The notes beneath the pieces were generated by a model. That model was not told where the DNA came from. It worked only from the letters and a program-made list of their open reading frames with translations, and did not search any database. A stretch of DNA of 64,000 bases from Methanolobus psychrophilus R15 (lineage in GTDB: Archaea; Halobacteriota; Methanosarcinia; Methanosarcinales; Methanosarcinaceae). The translations under genes were made by a program, and so were the position numbers. The stretch is from contig CP003083.1 of assembly GCA_000306725.1 (NCBI GenBank), forward strand, positions 2,282,042 through 2,346,041, read 5' to 3'. Shown piece after piece: positions 8,184 through 38,379 of this stretch; position 1 is the first letter of the stretch; each line of letters opens with the position of its first letter.

Positions 8184-9662
8184 TCAAAACTGTTTCGGCT
8201 GTGACACATTCATTTTCACTAGGATTCCCTTTAATTCTTCATATATTTTCCTATCGAACTTCAATAACAAAATCCCATATATTACAGTCCCCACTACAAC
8301 TGGAATCAATGTTAACCACACATTCGACAGTGGCATTAACCACCGATATCCACCCAAAAACAATCCCATAACAATAGATGCCTTTAAAATATTCCACAAA
8401 CTGTTAGATTCCACTCTGATCGTTAGTATCTTCGATAATACCCATAGTGCCAAAACTGTGTTTAGTCCCGTAGTAATAAGGGTGGCAATTGCAGCCCCTA
8501 AAATCCCTATTAATGGGATAAATGATGCATTCAATACAATGTTTACCACAACTGAAACTACAGTGATTTTAAATAAATCTTTAAGATAATCCATTGCAGT
8601 TAGATAAGTAGTGAAAAAAAAATTAAATATACTCACAGTTTGCACAATGAACAATACTGCCATAGTCATATATTCTCGTCCAAACTCCGCACCGTAGAAA
8701 TAGTACAGGAGTTTATCTCCCAGTAAAAATCCACCTACAAGCATTGGTATGGCCACAACAAGTGAGTATGTAAACGCTCTAGGTAATGATTTTTCTATCA
8801 ATCTCATATCATTGGTCTTTCTCCAGCGGCTAACTCTTGGATATAGTGTTGATCCAAGTGCAACTGTTGTGAACGAGACCAGCAATGTAAATTGCAATAT
8901 TATACGGTACACACCTACATCTGCATTGTCAAGATAATAACCTATCATAACTGTATCTGCAGTCGAAAAGACTATACCACCACCTGATATCAAAAAAACC
9001 CACAATGAAAATGTTGATAAGCTTTTAATGTGCCTCCACCTAAAGCGCACAAAATGCAAATCGAAAAAACGCAGTTGAACTATGGAACTGACAACTATCC
9101 CTACTACAAAACCACCGGCAAGGCCTGCAACACCATAACCCATAAAAATCGCAACTATTTGAACAATTATGCGTGAAAAGCTATTAATAAATCCTGCAGT
9201 TGCACTGATTCCCATTTTTCCGCAGCCATTGATGCCACTTTGAATAACCCCTCCCAAAATTCCTACAATCAGCGACAGTATGAGCCAGATAAATATTCCG
9301 GAATCGTTGAGATTAACAAAATAACTGCGAAATGTAATTAATACCACCACTACCAATATCACAAAAACAGAGCGGAGTACGATAAAAGCACTGAAATACG
9401 CATCCTGTTCCTCTCCCTCACTGATGCGCTTGATTGCAGCTCCACCAAAGCCGCCGTCAGCCACCAGATTAATGATGCTAAGATACGCAAGAAACAGGAA
9501 ATATCCGCCCAACACGCTTGCACCCGCCGCATGTGCAAAGTATATTGTACTCAAGAAACCAATAAACGTAAGTGCAATCTGCCAGATGAGAGACGCTATG
9601 CTCTGACGTCTGATTGCATCTATGCTCATAATGCGTGAGACGAATGTTTCTAATTTGAACAT
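8184..9662 (-). CDS. Lipid-linked oligosaccharide flippase (Wzx/MATE-like)
   Basis: A 492-residue integral membrane protein with 12-14 hydrophobic segments, the length and pattern of the polysaccharide biosynthesis (RfbX/Wzx) branch of the MOP superfamily. The start LIWQIALTFIGFLSTIYFAH and the conserved internal GAAIATLI segment fit this family. It would move a lipid-linked glycan across the membrane. It lies between the nucleotide-sugar genes (gmd, uxs, manC) and the modifying enzymes of the same minus-strand operon. A second flippase in the window lies at 41.8-43.0 kb, so this one probably serves the first glycan only. Confidence 0.85.
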   Translation of the reverse strand: MFKLETFVSRIMSIDAIRRQSIASLIWQIALTFIGFLSTIYFAHAAGASVLGGYFLFLAYLSIINLVADGGFGGAAIKRISEGEEQDAYFSAFIVLRSVFVILVVVVLITFRSYFVNLNDSGIFIWLILSLIVGILGGVIQSGINGCGKMGISATAGFINSFSRIIVQIVAIFMGYGVAGLAGGFVVGIVVSSIVQLRFFDLHFVRFRWRHIKSLSTFSLWVFLISGGGIVFSTADTVMIGYYLDNADVGVYRIILQFTLLVSFTTVALGSTLYPRVSRWRKTNDMRLIEKSLPRAFTYSLVVAIPMLVGGFLLGDKLLYYFYGAEFGREYMTMAVLFIVQTVSIFNFFFTTYLTAMDYLKDLFKITVVSVVVNIVLNASFIPLIGILGAAIATLITTGLNTVLALWVLSKILTIRVESNSLWNILKASIVMGLFLGGYRWLMPLSNVWLTLIPVVVGTVIYGILLLKFDRKIYEELKGILVKMNVSQPKQF

Positions 9663-30368: not shown

Positions 30369-31217
30369 ATGGTATCAGATGCTATGAAAAATTTGAGTGC
30401 GTATGTGAAATATGAAGACTTCCTTGAATTTGAAAATGCGGCACGTGAATATGAAGATTACGCTGTACGGAAGAAAGCAAGGGACGGCGAATATTCTTTA
30501 CTAATCAGGCTGCTGTTTTACACAGGCGCCCGTATATCAGAGATTGTAGGTAGTAATCAACGGATTTTCACTCAATGTCTGTTTCCCGGATTCAAAAAGC
30601 GGAAAGGTCTGTGTCCTAAGTGGGCATTAACAAAAGATGATAAAACTTGTATTGATGGCGGGTGCAAGTACCTGACTGCATATGTACAAAAGGCACATCA
30701 TGGAATCCGTGTTAAAGATATTGTTTTCAAGGACAGGATAATCGCTGTTTATGGAAAAAATGTTAAATCTGATGAATTAAAGGCACGTACTGTCATTATT
30801 GATATTGAAACCCTTGATATGTTGAAAGCACATATTGAAAAATATTCTTTGCGCCCGAGTGACAAAATTATCAGCATCAATGAAAACGGAAGCAAGGTCT
30901 TAATCAATACTCTGCGTGGCATTGTAAAGATGCCTTGGATATCTGCACACAAATTCCGTCATGGTCATGCGATATTTTGTATTCAGGGTGGCATGGATAT
31001 AAGGACATTGCAGCAGCAGCTTGGCCATTCCGATTTAGGGACGACTGCTATTTATTTGCAATTCGCAACCAGTGAGCGAAAAAAATCATATGATAAAGTC
31101 TTTGGTAAGAAACCTGACCATGTGAAAGTGCAATGTCCTTCATGTGGTTTTACATATAGACTTAAGCAATGTAAAGATATTGAACTGGGGGATAAATTAA
31201 AATCAATATTTGGTTAG
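30369..31217 (+). CDS. Tyrosine recombinase/integrase with zinc-binding insertions
   Basis: 282 residues from the ATG at 30369 (GGGGTG eleven bases upstream; the frame opens at 30303). Catalytic residues are visible: R55 in YTGARISEI, a candidate K130 in VYGKNVKS, H194 and R197 in AHKFRHGHA, H220 in QLGHSDLGTTAIYL and Y229. A Cys-rich insertion lies between R55 and K130 (C70, C82, C94, C99), and a C-terminal CPSCGFTYRLKQC looks like a second metal knuckle. The gene begins 77 bases from the 69-bp repeat, the place expected of an integrase beside its attachment site. A palindrome-like GTGTG-AA-CACAC lies just before the start and may be a binding site. Confidence 0.88.
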   Translation: MVSDAMKNLSAYVKYEDFLEFENAAREYEDYAVRKKARDGEYSLLIRLLFYTGARISEIVGSNQRIFTQCLFPGFKKRKGLCPKWALTKDDKTCIDGGCKYLTAYVQKAHHGIRVKDIVFKDRIIAVYGKNVKSDELKARTVIIDIETLDMLKAHIEKYSLRPSDKIISINENGSKVLINTLRGIVKMPWISAHKFRHGHAIFCIQGGMDIRTLQQQLGHSDLGTTAIYLQFATSERKKSYDKVFGKKPDHVKVQCPSCGFTYRLKQCKDIELGDKLKSIFG

Positions 31218-32256: not shown

Positions 32257-34743
32257 ATGATTACAAAAAATACTGAAATTGAAAGTGAGACCCCTGCCAC
32301 AGAGTCGCAAACGAAAGTAACTACAAATGTTAATTATACAGATGATATATATAAACATAATGATAAGACTGAAAAATCAGACCGTAATAACACATCTACC
32401 ACTCAAAAATCAAAAACCTTCAAAAATGGGTTGGATAGAAAAATCGTAATTGAAATAATAAGAACACTATATAATGAACTATACAAAGATAGACCTGATG
32501 AAGAATTAGGAATCCATAATGAAATATACAGAAAACTAGTGAAAAGCAAAGCCCCATTTCATTTTCTATATCGTGGTGATAGTCGTAATATGGATGGAGA
32601 TACACCCATCGAAAACTTGAAAATTCTCTATGAAAAATACGGACATTTGACGAACGAAGATAATAAAAATTATATATATGGCAATGTATTTCAAAATAAT
32701 ATTAATAGTAATATTAATGAAAATGAAAAAGTGACTCTCGTTACAGAGTCACAAGAAAAAACAACTAAAAATGTTGATATAAAAGATGATTTACCTCTAC
32801 ATCATGGTAACGTAGAAGATAAAAAAAGCATAAAAAAGAAAAATATTAAAATTGAGAAAAAGAAATTTAACCGAAAGAAAAAAACTAATAAGATCCATCT
32901 TTTTTATGATGTCAACAAAAAAGTGGACATTCTAATTTCTGATAAAGATGCAGATTGTACGAACGAACTAATAGCATGGCAACCAGGATTTGGAAAAACA
33001 AAGAAAGCTATTGATGAAATTACAAAAAATCCAGATGATTATTATATCTATATAACAAGTTCTCATCGATTACTTGCCGAAACTGAAAAAAATATTCTTA
33101 AAGAAAATCCAGATGCAAAATGCCTTATTATTGAAGGCTTCAAAAGAAGCTGTCACATCTTGCAAGATGAAAAAAACCATGACTATGAAAGAGTTTTGAG
33201 GTTCTACAATCAAAACGTGCATCCTGCAAACATTTGTATTCGCATGGGATGTAAAAACCGATGCAAGTATAAAGAACAATGGAGCCAAATTAGAGACGAT
33301 AAAGGAAATTTATGCACAAATATCCTATGCACTTTGAATCACATGAGTCTTTTCGATTTTAGAGATTTCAAAAAAGTATTCATCGATGAATCGATAAATG
33401 CTAATGGAAGATATGAGTATAGATACAATCATCCTTTTGCAGTGTGGGCTTTGAAAAAATTGGAACCCAACCTGAAGCAAAATTTTTATTATATGATTTT
33501 GGAAGCACTTCAAAAAAAACATGGGAAAATAATTCTAAAATATTACGAACTTTTGGACAAAATGGTTTTTGATTACAATAAAGCTATTTGTAAAATATAT
33601 AAAGAGGAAACGGACAATAAATTGATAAATAAACTAATAAAAGTAAGATTTAGTCAAATCGGGTTATACCTTGTTTATCGCCAACGGGAATTTGAAAACA
33701 ATCTGAGAAAAGTTCAAAATAAATACAATCCATTTCCAAAACATAACAATGAAAAGGATATAAACAAAAGTGAATGCTACCGAAACGAAGCACTTGATAA
33801 AAAAGTTATAGGATACACTTACATTCCACCAATTCTAACTGAATTTGCAGAAGATGAAGATCGAGCTGATTACGATAAAGCATTTTCAGATGATTCAAAG
33901 AAAAATGCAATTACAGTAACCGATGCTCTCAATATTTTAAATAAACTTAAAGAAGATGAAATTGAGCACTGTATGAAAATAGCAGAGACGGCTAATACTA
34001 TAAGCATATCATGGCATCAATTGGCGATGTACAAACAATTGTTTGAAGGAAATGATATTACATATATGGATACGACATTACAATTCACAAAAAGTTCATT
34101 CATTCAAGAAATAAAAGATTTTCAAGAAATATTTCCTGAATATAAACAGATATTGACATACAGCTATACGGAGGAGAAAAATAAAAATTCAGTTGTCAAA
34201 ATCAATTTCAGGCAGGGCAATTATAAAACCCATATTGAAAAATATATCGAAAAACTGAAACCGAAAATTAAAAAAATAATTGATAATCATAGAGCATTAC
34301 ACCCTGATGATAAAATATGCATCCTGACTTTCAAAAAGCTAATAACTAATGATGAAACAGCAGATCCATATAAGATGTATAAATTTATGGGCATAGATGC
34401 TTATTGGTTTGGTGGTGCCGGTGGTGTTAATGCTTTCAAAGGATATAAGAAACTTATTGTGGTTGGCACGCCAATGCCGCCTGAAGATTGGTATCAAAAA
34501 ACGTGGGAAACTCTTTATGGTGATGCGCCATTTCCAGAAAACACAGACATAGTTGATAATGGAATGTGGATGCTTCCGGAGGATGAGAAGCTGAGCCAGA
34601 TGTTTAAGGAAACGTGGTTTGGCGAAATATATAATGCAGTCCATAGGGTAAGACCACTTCAGAACGATACAACAATACATTGGTTTGGAAAGAATCTACC
34701 AGAGCAGATTGTAAATGAACTATCAGTTGAAGTCACGATTTAA
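32257..34743 (+). CDS. Large SF2 helicase-like protein with Cys cluster, candidate replication protein
   Basis: 828 residues, Lys/Asn-rich. Walker A is AWQPGFGKTKKAIDEI (243-248). Cys residues at 299, 327, 332, 336, 353 and 358 lie between Walker A and the DES box (VFIDESI, 375-380), the place where XPD/DinG helicases hold an Fe-S cluster. A late KLIVVGTPMPPEDW and VHRVRPLQND look like motifs V and VI. The N-terminal 200 residues are low complexity and hold an internal duplication (TESQTKVTTNV at 15-25 and TESQEKTTKNV at 163-173). As the largest protein of the element's left end it is the best candidate for its replication initiator or helicase. No exact family is recognised. Confidence 0.6.
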   Translation: MITKNTEIESETPATESQTKVTTNVNYTDDIYKHNDKTEKSDRNNTSTTQKSKTFKNGLDRKIVIEIIRTLYNELYKDRPDEELGIHNEIYRKLVKSKAPFHFLYRGDSRNMDGDTPIENLKILYEKYGHLTNEDNKNYIYGNVFQNNINSNINENEKVTLVTESQEKTTKNVDIKDDLPLHHGNVEDKKSIKKKNIKIEKKKFNRKKKTNKIHLFYDVNKKVDILISDKDADCTNELIAWQPGFGKTKKAIDEITKNPDDYYIYITSSHRLLAETEKNILKENPDAKCLIIEGFKRSCHILQDEKNHDYERVLRFYNQNVHPANICIRMGCKNRCKYKEQWSQIRDDKGNLCTNILCTLNHMSLFDFRDFKKVFIDESINANGRYEYRYNHPFAVWALKKLEPNLKQNFYYMILEALQKKHGKIILKYYELLDKMVFDYNKAICKIYKEETDNKLINKLIKVRFSQIGLYLVYRQREFENNLRKVQNKYNPFPKHNNEKDINKSECYRNEALDKKVIGYTYIPPILTEFAEDEDRADYDKAFSDDSKKNAITVTDALNILNKLKEDEIEHCMKIAETANTISISWHQLAMYKQLFEGNDITYMDTTLQFTKSSFIQEIKDFQEIFPEYKQILTYSYTEEKNKNSVVKINFRQGNYKTHIEKYIEKLKPKIKKIIDNHRALHPDDKICILTFKKLITNDETADPYKMYKFMGIDAYWFGGAGGVNAFKGYKKLIVVGTPMPPEDWYQKTWETLYGDAPFPENTDIVDNGMWMLPEDEKLSQMFKETWFGEIYNAVHRVRPLQNDTTIHWFGKNLPEQIVNELSVEVTI

Positions 34744-34773
34744 GGTGTTTATATACTAAATGCGAAAATACGC

Positions 34774-34868
34774 CATCAATAACAACTGTGTAAAGGTTAG
34801 TGCTAAAATCGGGGAAAACCGTGTAGTAAAAGCACTAACCTTTAGACTGTTTACATAGTTGCTTGATG
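34774..34868. repeat. 95-nt near-perfect hairpin after the helicase-like gene
   Basis: Three nested arm pairs: CATCAA/TTGATG (34774-34779 and 34863-34868), CAACTGTGTAAA/TTTACATAGTTG (34783-34794 and 34850-34861, one G-U) and AAAGGTTAGTGCT/AGCACTAACCTTT (34792-34804 and 34831-34843, perfect). The 26-base tip holds CGGGGAAAACCG. About 30 pairs form in all. It could be a replication origin, a recombination site, a terminator or a tiny transposon. It is far longer than an ordinary terminator. Confidence 0.75.
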
Positions 34869-35436
34869 ATTTGATTTATCAAGCAAAAACAGGTAGTTTT
34901 TGAACTTTATAATAAATCTGTTGAAGAATAAACAGCAATCGGGTGAACGTGCATTTATTGTATATTATATTAATAACTAAGGGATTCTTTCCTCAGCGGT
35001 CCTGATATATTTTATCTTGGCTGTGACTATACTCAATATCATATTTCAAGTCGATTTAAGACCAATTATTATAAAGCACAGCCCAAACTACCTTTTTAGT
35101 GATAAATCATCAATCTGGCAGGGGTTTTGGTGGGTTCCTGACGGATACAGGGCAAGTATCTATCATAGAAATAATATTTATCTATGATAAAACAATAGGC
35201 ATACACATAAAAATAATAACTTCATACAAGTTTGCTCCAACCCGCCTGAAGTTGCCTTTCAAAGGATCTTGAACGCTGACCCGAGCCAGACAGAGTACAG
35301 GATGAGTAAATACTTGATGTTCTGAACTAAGCAATATCAATTGATAGTTTATGCTATCTTTTTTCATTAGTTTCAGTGATTTCATCGGCTGAAATATAGC
35401 AATCATAATTCTAAAATTTACAGTGCAATAATAAAT
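34869..35436. other. Non-coding stretch with a terminator-like hairpin
   Basis: No convincing gene. TATCATAGA and TCTATGATA (about 35160-35190) form a 9-bp stem. The short minus-strand frame at 35182-35406 has no SD or recognisable content. Confidence 0.35.
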
Positions 35437-35468
35437 TTTATATACATGTTAACATATAAGTGTTAACA
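35437..35468 (+). promoter_or_regulatory. TATA box followed by paired TGTTAACA operators
   Basis: TTTTATATA is followed by two identical palindromes, TGTTAACA at 35447-35454 and 35461-35468, 14 bases apart. They lie where bound repressor would block TBP or the start of transcription of the gene at 35517. Confidence 0.55.
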
Positions 35469-35516
35469 GTCATAAAATATTACTTCAACAACTAATAAAT
35501 TTAGAGCATCGTAATT

Positions 35517-36578
35517 ATGATAATGAACAACAATGAAAACAAAACTCAAATACCAAGGACATCCAGCAGTCCAAAACTAACTGGAAAAGAAAAAGATTGT
35601 ATAGTTAAGGGAATTATTCTGCGAGGATTGCTCGAAAAACAGCCCATGAGAAGCAGAGAACTCTTTAATTCAATCCCATATGACAATTATGACTCCTTTC
35701 GTGTGATTTTGAGTCGTTTTTCTAGCTCGAAATATCGATATATTGAGAAGATTGGCCACAAGATGCCTTACTTATATCGACTGACTGATATTGGCAGAGT
35801 CCATGCCCAAAATCCGTTCTATTTCAGGGATAAATACAGAGCTCGGCAGGCAAAAGATAGAGAAATATATCTTTCCGAATTACTCAATGATCCAAGCAAG
35901 TTAAACTATTTTTTTGGCAATGTTGCCAGTAGTGAAATCAAAACAATATTCAATACCGTCAAAGAATACGTGGACTCAAACTCAAGTATGAGAGATTTTG
36001 GGGACGAGGACGATAGCCATCAATCTGCAGATGATGAAGAAAACGATTTTGAAGAGAAGTATTACACCTTGCAGGAAGAAATCAAGCAACTGAAGACTCA
36101 AAACTTCAATTTACAACTGAAATTGAATCAAAAACCTGCGCCAATTCCAAAGGCTCCCGAAACAAAATTGCCCTCCGCATCCAAAGGCAAACGATATGAC
36201 TATCTCTGTAGTTGGGACGGGAAAGTGCTCACATCAAGCTTCTTCGAAAGTGAGCTCATTCCATATGATGTGTTGATTAAGACCGCTGACAAAAACACAA
36301 TCAGCTCTTGGAAGAAAAAATTAAATCTTGAGTCAGATGAAAATATTGATATTTTCGCAAGAAACATATCCTCAACTCTGATTAAAGAGCGTCTTTATCG
36401 GAAAGCATCGCCAGAAGAAATCAAAGAAGCAGGCTTTTATTTGGTTAGAAATCGTGGAATCCGGATTCTATCGAAAAAATATTCAACAATTAATAAAGTA
36501 GTGTTGAAACAGTCCGATATTCCTGCATCTCCTAGGAATACGCCACAAGCCAATATTGTCGATAAAAACCGTAGATGA
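35517..36578 (+). CDS. Winged-helix and coiled-coil protein, unknown function
   Basis: 353 residues. Residues about 25-105 look like a winged helix (EKDCIVKGIILRGLLEKQPM, RSRELFNSIP, then YLYRLTDIGRVHA as the wing). Acidic and coiled-coil sequence follows (DDEENDFEEKYYTLQEEIKQ) and then a C-terminal domain of about 130 residues that starts GKRYDYLCSWDGKVL. No family is recognised. It follows a promoter with two palindromic operators, so it is probably a regulated element gene, perhaps a replication or partition factor. Confidence 0.55.
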   Translation: MIMNNNENKTQIPRTSSSPKLTGKEKDCIVKGIILRGLLEKQPMRSRELFNSIPYDNYDSFRVILSRFSSSKYRYIEKIGHKMPYLYRLTDIGRVHAQNPFYFRDKYRARQAKDREIYLSELLNDPSKLNYFFGNVASSEIKTIFNTVKEYVDSNSSMRDFGDEDDSHQSADDEENDFEEKYYTLQEEIKQLKTQNFNLQLKLNQKPAPIPKAPETKLPSASKGKRYDYLCSWDGKVLTSSFFESELIPYDVLIKTADKNTISSWKKKLNLESDENIDIFARNISSTLIKERLYRKASPEEIKEAGFYLVRNRGIRILSKKYSTINKVVLKQSDIPASPRNTPQANIVDKNRR

Positions 36579-36754: not shown

Positions 36755-37072
36755 ATGAAAACAAATACGATAAAAATCTCCGATGAAGCAAATCAAAAAA
36801 TAAAAATGCTGATGGCAAGAAATGACATGAACTTTTCCGAAGCAGTAGAATTCCTTGCTATGTTAGTCCCGACGACATCAACTCCAAAAACTAGCAAACT
36901 TGAGACCGAGCTATCAAGTATACAAATGCAAGCTTTCAACATTGCTGAATACACTCAGGAAATCATTCAAGAATTCAGGAAAACAGGCTCTTTTCCCATT
37001 GTAGCATACCATGATTATGTCATGATGTGTACTGGAATGATTCGAAGTGATGCTGAAGATATGCGTAGTTGA
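36755..37072 (+). CDS. Ribbon-helix-helix regulator with C-terminal extension
   Basis: 105 residues. NTIKISDEANQKIKMLMARN and MNFSEAVEFLAML form the ribbon-helix-helix fold. The rest (about 50-105) is helical (ELSSIQMQAFNIAEYTQEII) and may mediate oligomer contacts. AAGGA precedes the ATG. Repeated AT-rich words upstream suggest it controls its own gene. Confidence 0.65.
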   Translation: MKTNTIKISDEANQKIKMLMARNDMNFSEAVEFLAMLVPTTSTPKTSKLETELSSIQMQAFNIAEYTQEIIQEFRKTGSFPIVAYHDYVMMCTGMIRSDAEDMRS

Positions 37073-37413: not shown

Positions 37414-38379
37414 TTGATATGTCCTGAATGCGCCACATATTCGGTCTATTATCATCAAAGATCAAATGAGTGGATGTGTAAGCAGTGTGGTATAGCTGTT
37501 CATGTCCAGAGATCAGTGGAAATCTTCAATTTAGACTTTACAGACAGAGAGAAGTATAAGATCTACACTTTTTATGGGATTAATGCTCTAGTTAATTTAA
37601 CTGGTTATTCCAAGAGGAAAGCAGAAAACTTTGTAAAGAAGGTTTTTGAAGACTTCTGTACAACAAAAGGGAATCAATGCCCCTACATCAATTATCTTGA
37701 AAATTCAAATTTGGCTAAAAAAGGAGAATTAATTGAAAGAAGGTTCATTTATTCAATGAATGCGTATATTTCTTTAATGGATGAGGTCGAAGTCTTTTTG
37801 AGCAAGCTGACAAATGAAAAGAACCTCCCTGAAGATGAAACAAAACAGGTTATTGATATTTGCGCTTCTTTGAAAGAGGATCTGGAAGCAATGATCGAAG
37901 GATTGGAAGAATTTGTTGTTGCATCTGCCAGTGCTGATCTCACAAGAGGTCAGAAAGTTTATCTTAAAGAAAATGGGGAATATTTGACTGCGACACTGGA
38001 TGAAGATGAGATTGAGGGGTTCTGCTGGAATGATGCAAAAAAAGGAGAGTTCGTTGGTGTTTGTTTTTTCCCACCAGATTCGTTTTATGTAATTAAGCGC
38101 CACTTTGGAAAAATAAGAGACAAATACAAGAATAAACCCACTATATCTGCTCTTAAGCGAGTTCACGATCCTGAATTCACTTTATTGGAACAACAGGCAT
38201 TATCTCTTATTTCTAATAATGGGTTCTATTTTCAGTATGAGATCGGGAAAGAATTGGGTGTGGATAGCAGGAAATCTTCCAGAGTTATTCGATCATTGGT
38301 GGATCAAGGATTGATAATTAGAGAGCCAGCTGCTTCTTCGAATGGTGCCAGAACTTATAAGCTGCAAGTAAAAAGTTGA
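37414..38379 (+). CDS. TFIIB-type zinc ribbon and winged-helix DNA-binding protein
   Basis: 321 residues from TTG 37414; the frame is open upstream to 37354 (GEFGIGPLSEKSLFDEETRLL) without an ATG or a normal SD, so the real start may be upstream at a rare codon. The zinc ribbon is CPEC-x15-CKQC, the spacing of TFB N-terminal ribbons. The middle is helical with another Cys pair near residue 80-90. A C-terminal winged helix is TLLEQQALSLISNNGFYFQY, then IGKELGVDSRKSSRVIRSLV. No cyclin folds of TFB are evident. It is probably a transcription regulator of the element. Confidence 0.6.
   Translation: MICPECATYSVYYHQRSNEWMCKQCGIAVHVQRSVEIFNLDFTDREKYKIYTFYGINALVNLTGYSKRKAENFVKKVFEDFCTTKGNQCPYINYLENSNLAKKGELIERRFIYSMNAYISLMDEVEVFLSKLTNEKNLPEDETKQVIDICASLKEDLEAMIEGLEEFVVASASADLTRGQKVYLKENGEYLTATLDEDEIEGFCWNDAKKGEFVGVCFFPPDSFYVIKRHFGKIRDKYKNKPTISALKRVHDPEFTLLEQQALSLISNNGFYFQYEIGKELGVDSRKSSRVIRSLVDQGLIIREPAASSNGARTYKLQVKS

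What the first reader, a model, noticed from the sequence alone, without database searches (positions are those of the whole stretch)
34774..34868. Very long near-perfect hairpin after the helicase-like gene
Three collinear arm pairs give about 30 base pairs with only small bulges and a GC-containing tip. This far exceeds a terminator. Next to the replication-type gene it could be an origin structure (for example for single-strand initiation), a recombination or resolution site for one of the two tyrosine recombinases, or a tiny non-autonomous transposon.
Basis: partly seen in the sequence, partly recalled or inferred. Interest (0 to 1): 0.62.

Follow-up and report, generated by a model that had tools for sequence, protein, structure and literature searches.

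The report
Hairpin origin of archaeal integrated element
The long hairpin is real and is probably the DNA replication start site of a small mobile element inserted in a methane-producing archaeon's chromosome, resembling the hairpin origin of the Sulfolobus plasmid pRN1 but paired with an unrelated helicase.

Summary
The hairpin is real: 28 pairs, 26-nt loop, one 9-nt bulge, starting 30 nt after the stop codon of an 828-aa SF2-like helicase gene. It is single-copy, so not a MITE, and does not match an intrinsic terminator. Helicase relatives occur in 12 of 185 genomes of the order. In a second genus (helicase 43% identical) the same hairpin sits downstream with the same asymmetric bulge; all 22 counted pairs hold and 4 changed on both sides. 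The arms are inverted copies of an 11-bp repeat, AACTGTNTAAA; the bulge is an extra copy. The repeat occurs 9 times in 7.2 kb downstream of the helicase genes and once in the other 260 kb of those loci (6 of 12 loci, all within one family). It is almost absent (1 of 20) from related elements recognised only by a shared winged-helix gene, so it tracks the helicase. One element carries the repeat beside an unrelated D5/SF3 helicase, with neighbouring genes syntenic. Best reading: an inverted-iteron replication origin (oriV) of an integrated element, working like the experimentally shown pRN1 origin. Function is inferred, not shown. New variant of a known kind.

The parts
34774..34804 (+). left arm of the hairpin, one complete iteron (AACTGTGTAAA, 34784-34794)
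34805..34830 (+). 26-nt loop
34831..34868 (+). right arm; on the minus strand two tandem, overlapping iterons (AACTATGTAAA 34850-34860 and AACAGTCTAAA 34841-34851, one mismatch each)
34845..34853 (+). 9-nt bulge that holds the extra iteron; a 10-nt bulge lies at the same place in L048 (genome G126)
34771..34781 (+). second motif at the hairpin base (CGCCATCAATA, compare CGCTATCRRT in other elements); suggestive only
34863..34915 (+). left arm of a second, larger imperfect inverted repeat (shares its first bases with the first hairpin)
35066..35113 (+). right arm of the second inverted repeat
34744..35516 (.). 773-nt noncoding region (68% A+T) between helicase and winged-helix genes; proposed origin region
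32257..34743 (+). SF2-like helicase gene, 828 aa; proposed initiator/unwinding protein
30369..31217 (+). tyrosine recombinase (integrase) gene of the element; start set at the codon that aligns with L048 7280
35517..36578 (+). winged-helix plus coiled-coil protein shared by all 10 compared elements, 353 aa

Best explanation
The hairpin is the core of the replication origin (oriV) of a small integrated plasmid- or virus-like element (roughly window 30.3-38.7 kb). It is built from inverted copies of an 11-bp iteron, one copy in the left arm and two tandem copies 9 bp apart in the right arm. After excision, the SF2-like helicase encoded just upstream (perhaps helped by the winged-helix protein encoded just downstream) would bind the iterons on both arms, the palindrome would be unwound or extruded, and replication would start there. 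SHOWN by sequence: the structure, its position, conservation of repeat and pairing, and its link to the helicase gene. INFERRED: binding, unwinding, initiation, excision and autonomous replication.
For: Fold beats all 200 shuffles. In L048 (another genus, helicase 43% identical) the same hairpin and bulge lie downstream of the helicase gene; 22 of 22 counted pairs hold in both sequences, 4 changed on both sides. It is the only blastn match between the two noncoding regions (E 0.019). AACTGTNTAAA: 9 in 7,200 nt just downstream of 12 helicase genes versus 1 in 259,809 nt elsewhere in those loci; 6 of 9 regions of the family versus a shuffle mean of 0.05, maximum 2. The top 8-mers among 8 chosen regions are pieces of the same iteron. 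Hairpin scores of the 9 family regions beat 95 control regions (p = 0.003). The integrase-helicase-origin order is kept in L048, and the iteron stays when the helicase gene is replaced by a D5/SF3 helicase in L026. pRN1 precedent: a 100-nt stem-loop 54 bp downstream of the replicase gene is required in cis and can be moved (PMC4234260, abstract and passages).
Against: No function was tested. Not every relative has it: 3 of 9 family regions (L024, L025, L049) and 3 of 3 regions from another family lack exact AACTGTNTAAA; L022 and L023 have the iteron but no significant hairpin (z -0.56 and -0.40). Control regions also hold strong hairpins (6 of 95 with z < -3). For all 42 replication-gene regions together the hairpin excess is weak (p = 0.03). 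The motif was worded after seeing most of the regions. No free plasmid or phage with this helicase was found. Pairing covariation rests on two sequences; 34 of 500 column shuffles do as well.
Confidence: 0.62

Rival explanations
1. Partition (centromere-like) or plasmid-incompatibility site: the inverted iterons are bound by the winged-helix/coiled-coil protein for segregation, not for initiation.
For: The winged-helix protein is shared by all 10 compared elements and is encoded next after the hairpin region in the window.
Against: The iteron follows the helicase, not this gene: 1 of 20 loci carrying the winged-helix gene without the SF2-like helicase have AACTGTNTAAA, and that one is 2.4 kb away. 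No ParA-type partner was noticed among the genes shared by the elements, but this was not searched for as such.
Confidence: 0.12
2. RNA element: 3'-UTR structure, transcription-end signal or small RNA of the helicase transcript.
For: It begins 30 nt after the stop codon and folds very stably as RNA. dRNA-seq of Methanolobus psychrophilus reported 195 small RNAs (PMC5378194, passages); whether one lies here was not readable.
Against: Only one sub-threshold, chance-like Rfam match. Not an intrinsic-terminator match. In L048 it lies 260 nt after the stop. Iterons also occur without a paired partner (L022, L023, L026).
Confidence: 0.1
3. Recombination site (attP, resolution or arm sites) for the element's tyrosine recombinase.
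For: An integrase gene lies in the same element; inverted short repeats are typical of recombinase sites (recalled).
Against: The site is about 3.6 kb from the integrase gene, between other genes, and similarly placed in L048. The iteron also occurs in elements whose integrases are not detectably similar to the window's (L022, L026). Element ends and att sites were not mapped.
Confidence: 0.08
4. Rolling-circle double-strand origin nicked by an undetected endonuclease (for example a Rep-Arvir-type protein).
For: A hairpin downstream of rep serves as origin in SNJ2 virus, and Rep-Arvir proteins occur in methanogens (PMC13107129, abstract and passages).
Against: No rolling-circle endonuclease was recognised with confidence by Pfam or PHROGs in the element's five main proteins (one weak PHROG replication-initiation match, E 0.0054, to the 321-aa protein). 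The shared winged-helix family has no invariant tyrosine. Rep-Arvir itself was not compared directly.
Confidence: 0.06
5. MITE or other mobile hairpin.
For: Size and symmetry only.
Against: Single copy in its genome. Model R1 finds one other clear copy in 185 genomes, at the homologous locus, plus a weak hit in G080 (E 8.6e-4 for that genome) among unrelated genes.
Confidence: 0.02

Closest known systems
pRN1-family stem-loop origin (Sulfolobus plasmids; PMC4234260, PMC3869888)
   Same: About 100-nt stem-loop in the noncoding DNA directly downstream of the replication gene; paired structure kept while the inner stem sequence changes.
   Different: The pRN1 replicase is a primase plus SF3 helicase plus winged helix, whereas here an SF2-like helicase; here the arms are recognisable iterons with a conserved asymmetric bulge; function untested.
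Herpes simplex OriS with the SF2 origin-binding protein UL9 (PMC12543377)
   Same: SF2 helicase; inverted short boxes, one extra copy, spacer, potential hairpin.
   Different: No sequence relationship shown; archaeal element; much longer hairpin; binding untested; no Pfam match to the herpes protein.
SNJ2 / betapleolipovirus hairpin origin with Rep-Arvir (PMC13107129)
   Same: Hairpin origin downstream of the rep gene in an integrative archaeal element; bipartite (hairpin plus another inverted repeat).
   Different: Rolling-circle endonuclease there; a helicase and no recognised endonuclease here. The paper reports no convincing conserved downstream element outside Halobacteria for that family.

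Membership tests
pRN1-type stem-loop origin | about 100-nt stem-loop immediately downstream of the replication gene | tested here: met
   95-nt structure, 30 nt after the stop codon
pRN1-type stem-loop origin | replication protein with archaeo-eukaryotic primase and SF3 helicase | tested here: not met
   no Pfam match in the window protein; among 8 family members the helicase-type matches are DEAD and ResIII, best E 4.1e-5
pRN1-type stem-loop origin | stem-loop required in cis for replication | not testable with these tools
   needs a genetic test
iteron-type plasmid origin | repeated short sites in the origin region | tested here: met
   repeats found and enriched downstream of the helicase gene
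iteron-type plasmid origin | initiator protein binds the repeats | not testable with these tools
   needs a binding assay
UL9/OriS-type origin | initiator is an SF2 helicase | tested here: inconclusive
   Walker A, D-E box, DAT and HRxRP motifs in the alignment (assignment to SF2 motifs recalled); DEAD hit in 1 and ResIII in 2 of 8 members; structure model unusable, mean pLDDT 34
UL9/OriS-type origin | homology to herpes origin-binding protein | tested here: not met
   no such Pfam family among the hits of 8 members; no helicase hit in PDB sequences
rolling-circle origin | cognate tyrosine endonuclease (HUH or Rep_trans/Rep-Arvir) | tested here: inconclusive
   none recognised with confidence in 5 element proteins; Rep-Arvir not compared directly
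MITE | multiple dispersed copies with target-site duplications | tested here: not met
   single copy
intrinsic terminator | short G+C-rich stem followed at once by a T run | tested here: not met
   no match at the site

The most novel reading that the evidence does not exclude
The element family uses an SF2 helicase as an origin-binding initiator that recognises inverted iterons within an extrudable hairpin: an archaeal counterpart, in logic, of herpesvirus UL9/OriS, in elements whose replication helicase can be exchanged for a D5/SF3 type while the neighbouring genes stay syntenic.
Probability: 0.3. Interest if true: 0.75.

Novelty: new variant of a known kind. Interest (0 to 1): 0.5.

Why it matters
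Replication of most mobile elements of methanogenic archaea is uncharacterised (general knowledge, recalled). If right, this gives a defined candidate origin of about 100 bp with a candidate initiator that carries no family name, testable at once in plasmids. It would extend hairpin origins placed behind the replication gene from Sulfolobus and haloarchaeal elements to methanogens, and to a helicase type other than the primase/SF3 proteins of the pRN family. It could also seed shuttle vectors for Methanolobus-like hosts.

Tried and rejected
Pattern scans for the right arm in viral contigs and genome contigs: 0 hits each. Protein scans for the helicase in genome contigs, viral contigs, plasmids and phages (the last with the L025 relative): no confirmed relative. 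Rfam on 9 kb: one chance-like miRNA match. PDB sequence search with A2: only saposin-like and designed-protein hits, taken as chance. k-mer search in the 29 other D5 regions: no shared iteron emerged, so the looser inverted repeats that I saw by eye near several D5 genes are not claimed as one motif. Element ends, att sites and an empty site were not mapped. The GC-skew table was not used as evidence.

Dropped rows and biases: the weak helicase match G178/L054 was left out of all counts. One search's main group of 8 regions left out L024 and L049 (which lack the exact motif) and the three f5 loci; one search counts all 12. L055 duplicates the G007 element and was left out. In one search, 47 of 185 genomes matched; only the 30 loci returned were examined. 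The script label 'independent' (4 of 7) is too strong: AACTGTNTAAA was worded. The checks made after wording were the D5 loci (2 of 30 downstream, one of them the G007 copy) and the winged-helix loci (1 of 20).

Full report
Observation. The structure exists as described. Reading the sequence, 28 pairs join 34774-34804 to 34831-34868 around a 26-nt loop, with a 9-nt bulge in the right arm. As RNA the stretch 34754-34890 folds with z -7.45, as DNA 34770-34870 with z -5.26; no shuffle of 200 matched it in either case. [quoted passage not shown] A second, weaker inverted repeat lies directly 3'.

Setting. The window is part of a 3,072,769-base single-contig genome. From recall this size fits Methanolobus psychrophilus R15; no call confirmed the name. 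The region has an integrase (Pfam PF00589, E 3.9e-16), the 828-aa gene, a 353-aa winged-helix/coiled-coil gene and two smaller genes; 'winged helix' is my reading of the sequence and alignment. The 828-aa protein has no Pfam, PHROG or NCBIfam match. Its alignment shows Walker A, a D-E box, a DAT motif and HRxRP, and of 8 family members two match ResIII and one DEAD at 4.1e-5; I call it SF2-like, a moderate-confidence label.

Relatives. A profile of the helicase matches 12 of 185 genomes of the order, the window's own genome (with a second copy) among them. I examined the downstream DNA of 12 genes (window, L021-L025, L048-L053); the weak match L054 was looked at and left out. L048, from another genus, carries practically the same hairpin: CAACTGTGTAAAGGT in the left arm and ACCTTTAGAC, GTTT, ACA and AGTTG in that order in the right, with the same kind of 9-10 nt bulge. 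Of 22 counted pairs all hold in both sequences; 4 changed on both sides, all in the inner stem. Sliding the partner by 1-3 columns drops pairing from 100% to 32-46%. With two sequences this is suggestive: 34 of 500 column shuffles do equally well. The same-genome copy L021 and L025 have other long hairpins at the same place (DNA z -5.28 and -4.28); L050 is borderline (z -2.11, -3.19).

The repeat. The arms are inverted copies of AACTGTNTAAA: one exact copy on the left, and two tandem copies with one mismatch each on the right at 9-bp spacing. The bulge is the extra copy. In the 12 helicase loci the exact motif occurs 9 times in the 7,200 nt downstream of the gene and once in the other 259,809 nt. 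By region, 6 of 12 have it; all 6 are among the 9 of family f1, against a shuffle mean of 0.05 and maximum 2. L025, L049, L024 and the three f5 loci lack it. The motif was worded after I had seen these regions. A k-mer count without a preset motif, on 8 regions chosen to leave out L024 and L049, ranks ACTGTGTA and CAACTGTG first among 8-mers.

Who reads the repeat? The winged-helix gene is present in all 10 compared elements and in 28 of 185 genomes. In 20 further loci carrying it, none with the SF2-like helicase by profile search of their longer ORFs, the motif appears once, 2.4 kb away. Near D5/SF3 helicase genes it appears downstream in 2 of 30 loci. So the repeat goes with the SF2-like helicase, which makes that protein the likelier reader. 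The exception is instructive: the G007 element (L026) has a D5/SF3 helicase instead, keeps CAACTGTGTAAACAGTCTAAAG about 430 nt behind it, and is otherwise syntenic with the SF2-type element L022. There the opposite arm is missing. This exception also weakens the inference: in that element something other than an SF2-like helicase must read the repeat, or it is a relic.

Are hairpins generally there? Against 95 regions behind other genes of the same loci, the 9 family regions have lower fold z-scores (p = 0.003; 5 of 9 below -3, against 6 of 95). All 42 replication-gene regions together differ weakly (p = 0.03). L022, L023, L024 and L049 show no significant hairpin. So the repeat and the hairpin are each common but neither is universal.

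Mechanism. I read it as an inverted-iteron origin: initiator bound to both arms, palindrome unwound or extruded, replication started. The strongest outside support is experimental work on pRN1: a 100-nt stem-loop 54 bp behind the replicase gene is needed, restores replication when moved elsewhere, and needs intact structure (PMC4234260, abstract and passages read; PMC3869888, abstract read). SNJ2 virus offers a second archaeal case with a rolling-circle protein (PMC13107129, abstract and passages). HSV OriS shows an SF2 helicase acting on inverted boxes and a hairpin (PMC12543377, passages). These are likenesses in working, not proofs of membership; the pRN1 replicase type was tested and not met.

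Other readings. A MITE is not supported: single copy, and a covariance model finds one other clear copy in 185 genomes, at the homologous place; a weak extra hit in G080 lies among unrelated genes. The terminator pattern does not match. Recombination and partition sites remain possible but fit the position and distribution less well.

Print. Seven paper searches of the open library listed no description of this element family or hairpin; subscription papers were not searchable, so absence from print is not established. Verdict: real, conserved, most likely an origin of a known kind with a different helicase; interest 0.5.

Noticed in passing
window 32257-32910: The window helicase has an N-terminal extension of roughly 220 aa that its closest relatives, including the 625-aa L048 protein, lack.
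   Followed up: no
L026 and L027 (G007), L026:6074-10343: Two copies of an element in one genome are 99.6% identical over 4.3 kb holding the D5 helicase and repeat, but about 78-91% in other matching parts; looks like recent exchange or gene conversion of the replication module.
   Followed up: partly
L026 about 8,700-9,130: Several copies of AACCCAAGTTTTTT-like repeats lie between the D5 helicase gene and the iteron.
   Followed up: no
window 34772; L022 10513; L025 8956; L048 11034 and 11085: A second motif, CGCTATCRRT or close to it, recurs beside the iterons and may be another origin element.
   Followed up: partly
L058, L062, L068, L076 downstream of D5 genes: Inverted pairs of double short repeats (such as TGTCTAAG...CTTAGACA) recur behind D5 helicase genes, each element with its own sequence (seen by eye).
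   Followed up: partly
window 36755-37072 and 37414-38379: A small protein that looks like a ribbon-helix-helix protein (my reading) and a zinc-ribbon/MarR-like protein lie in the element's right part; the latter found no counterpart in the nine other elements compared.
   Followed up: no
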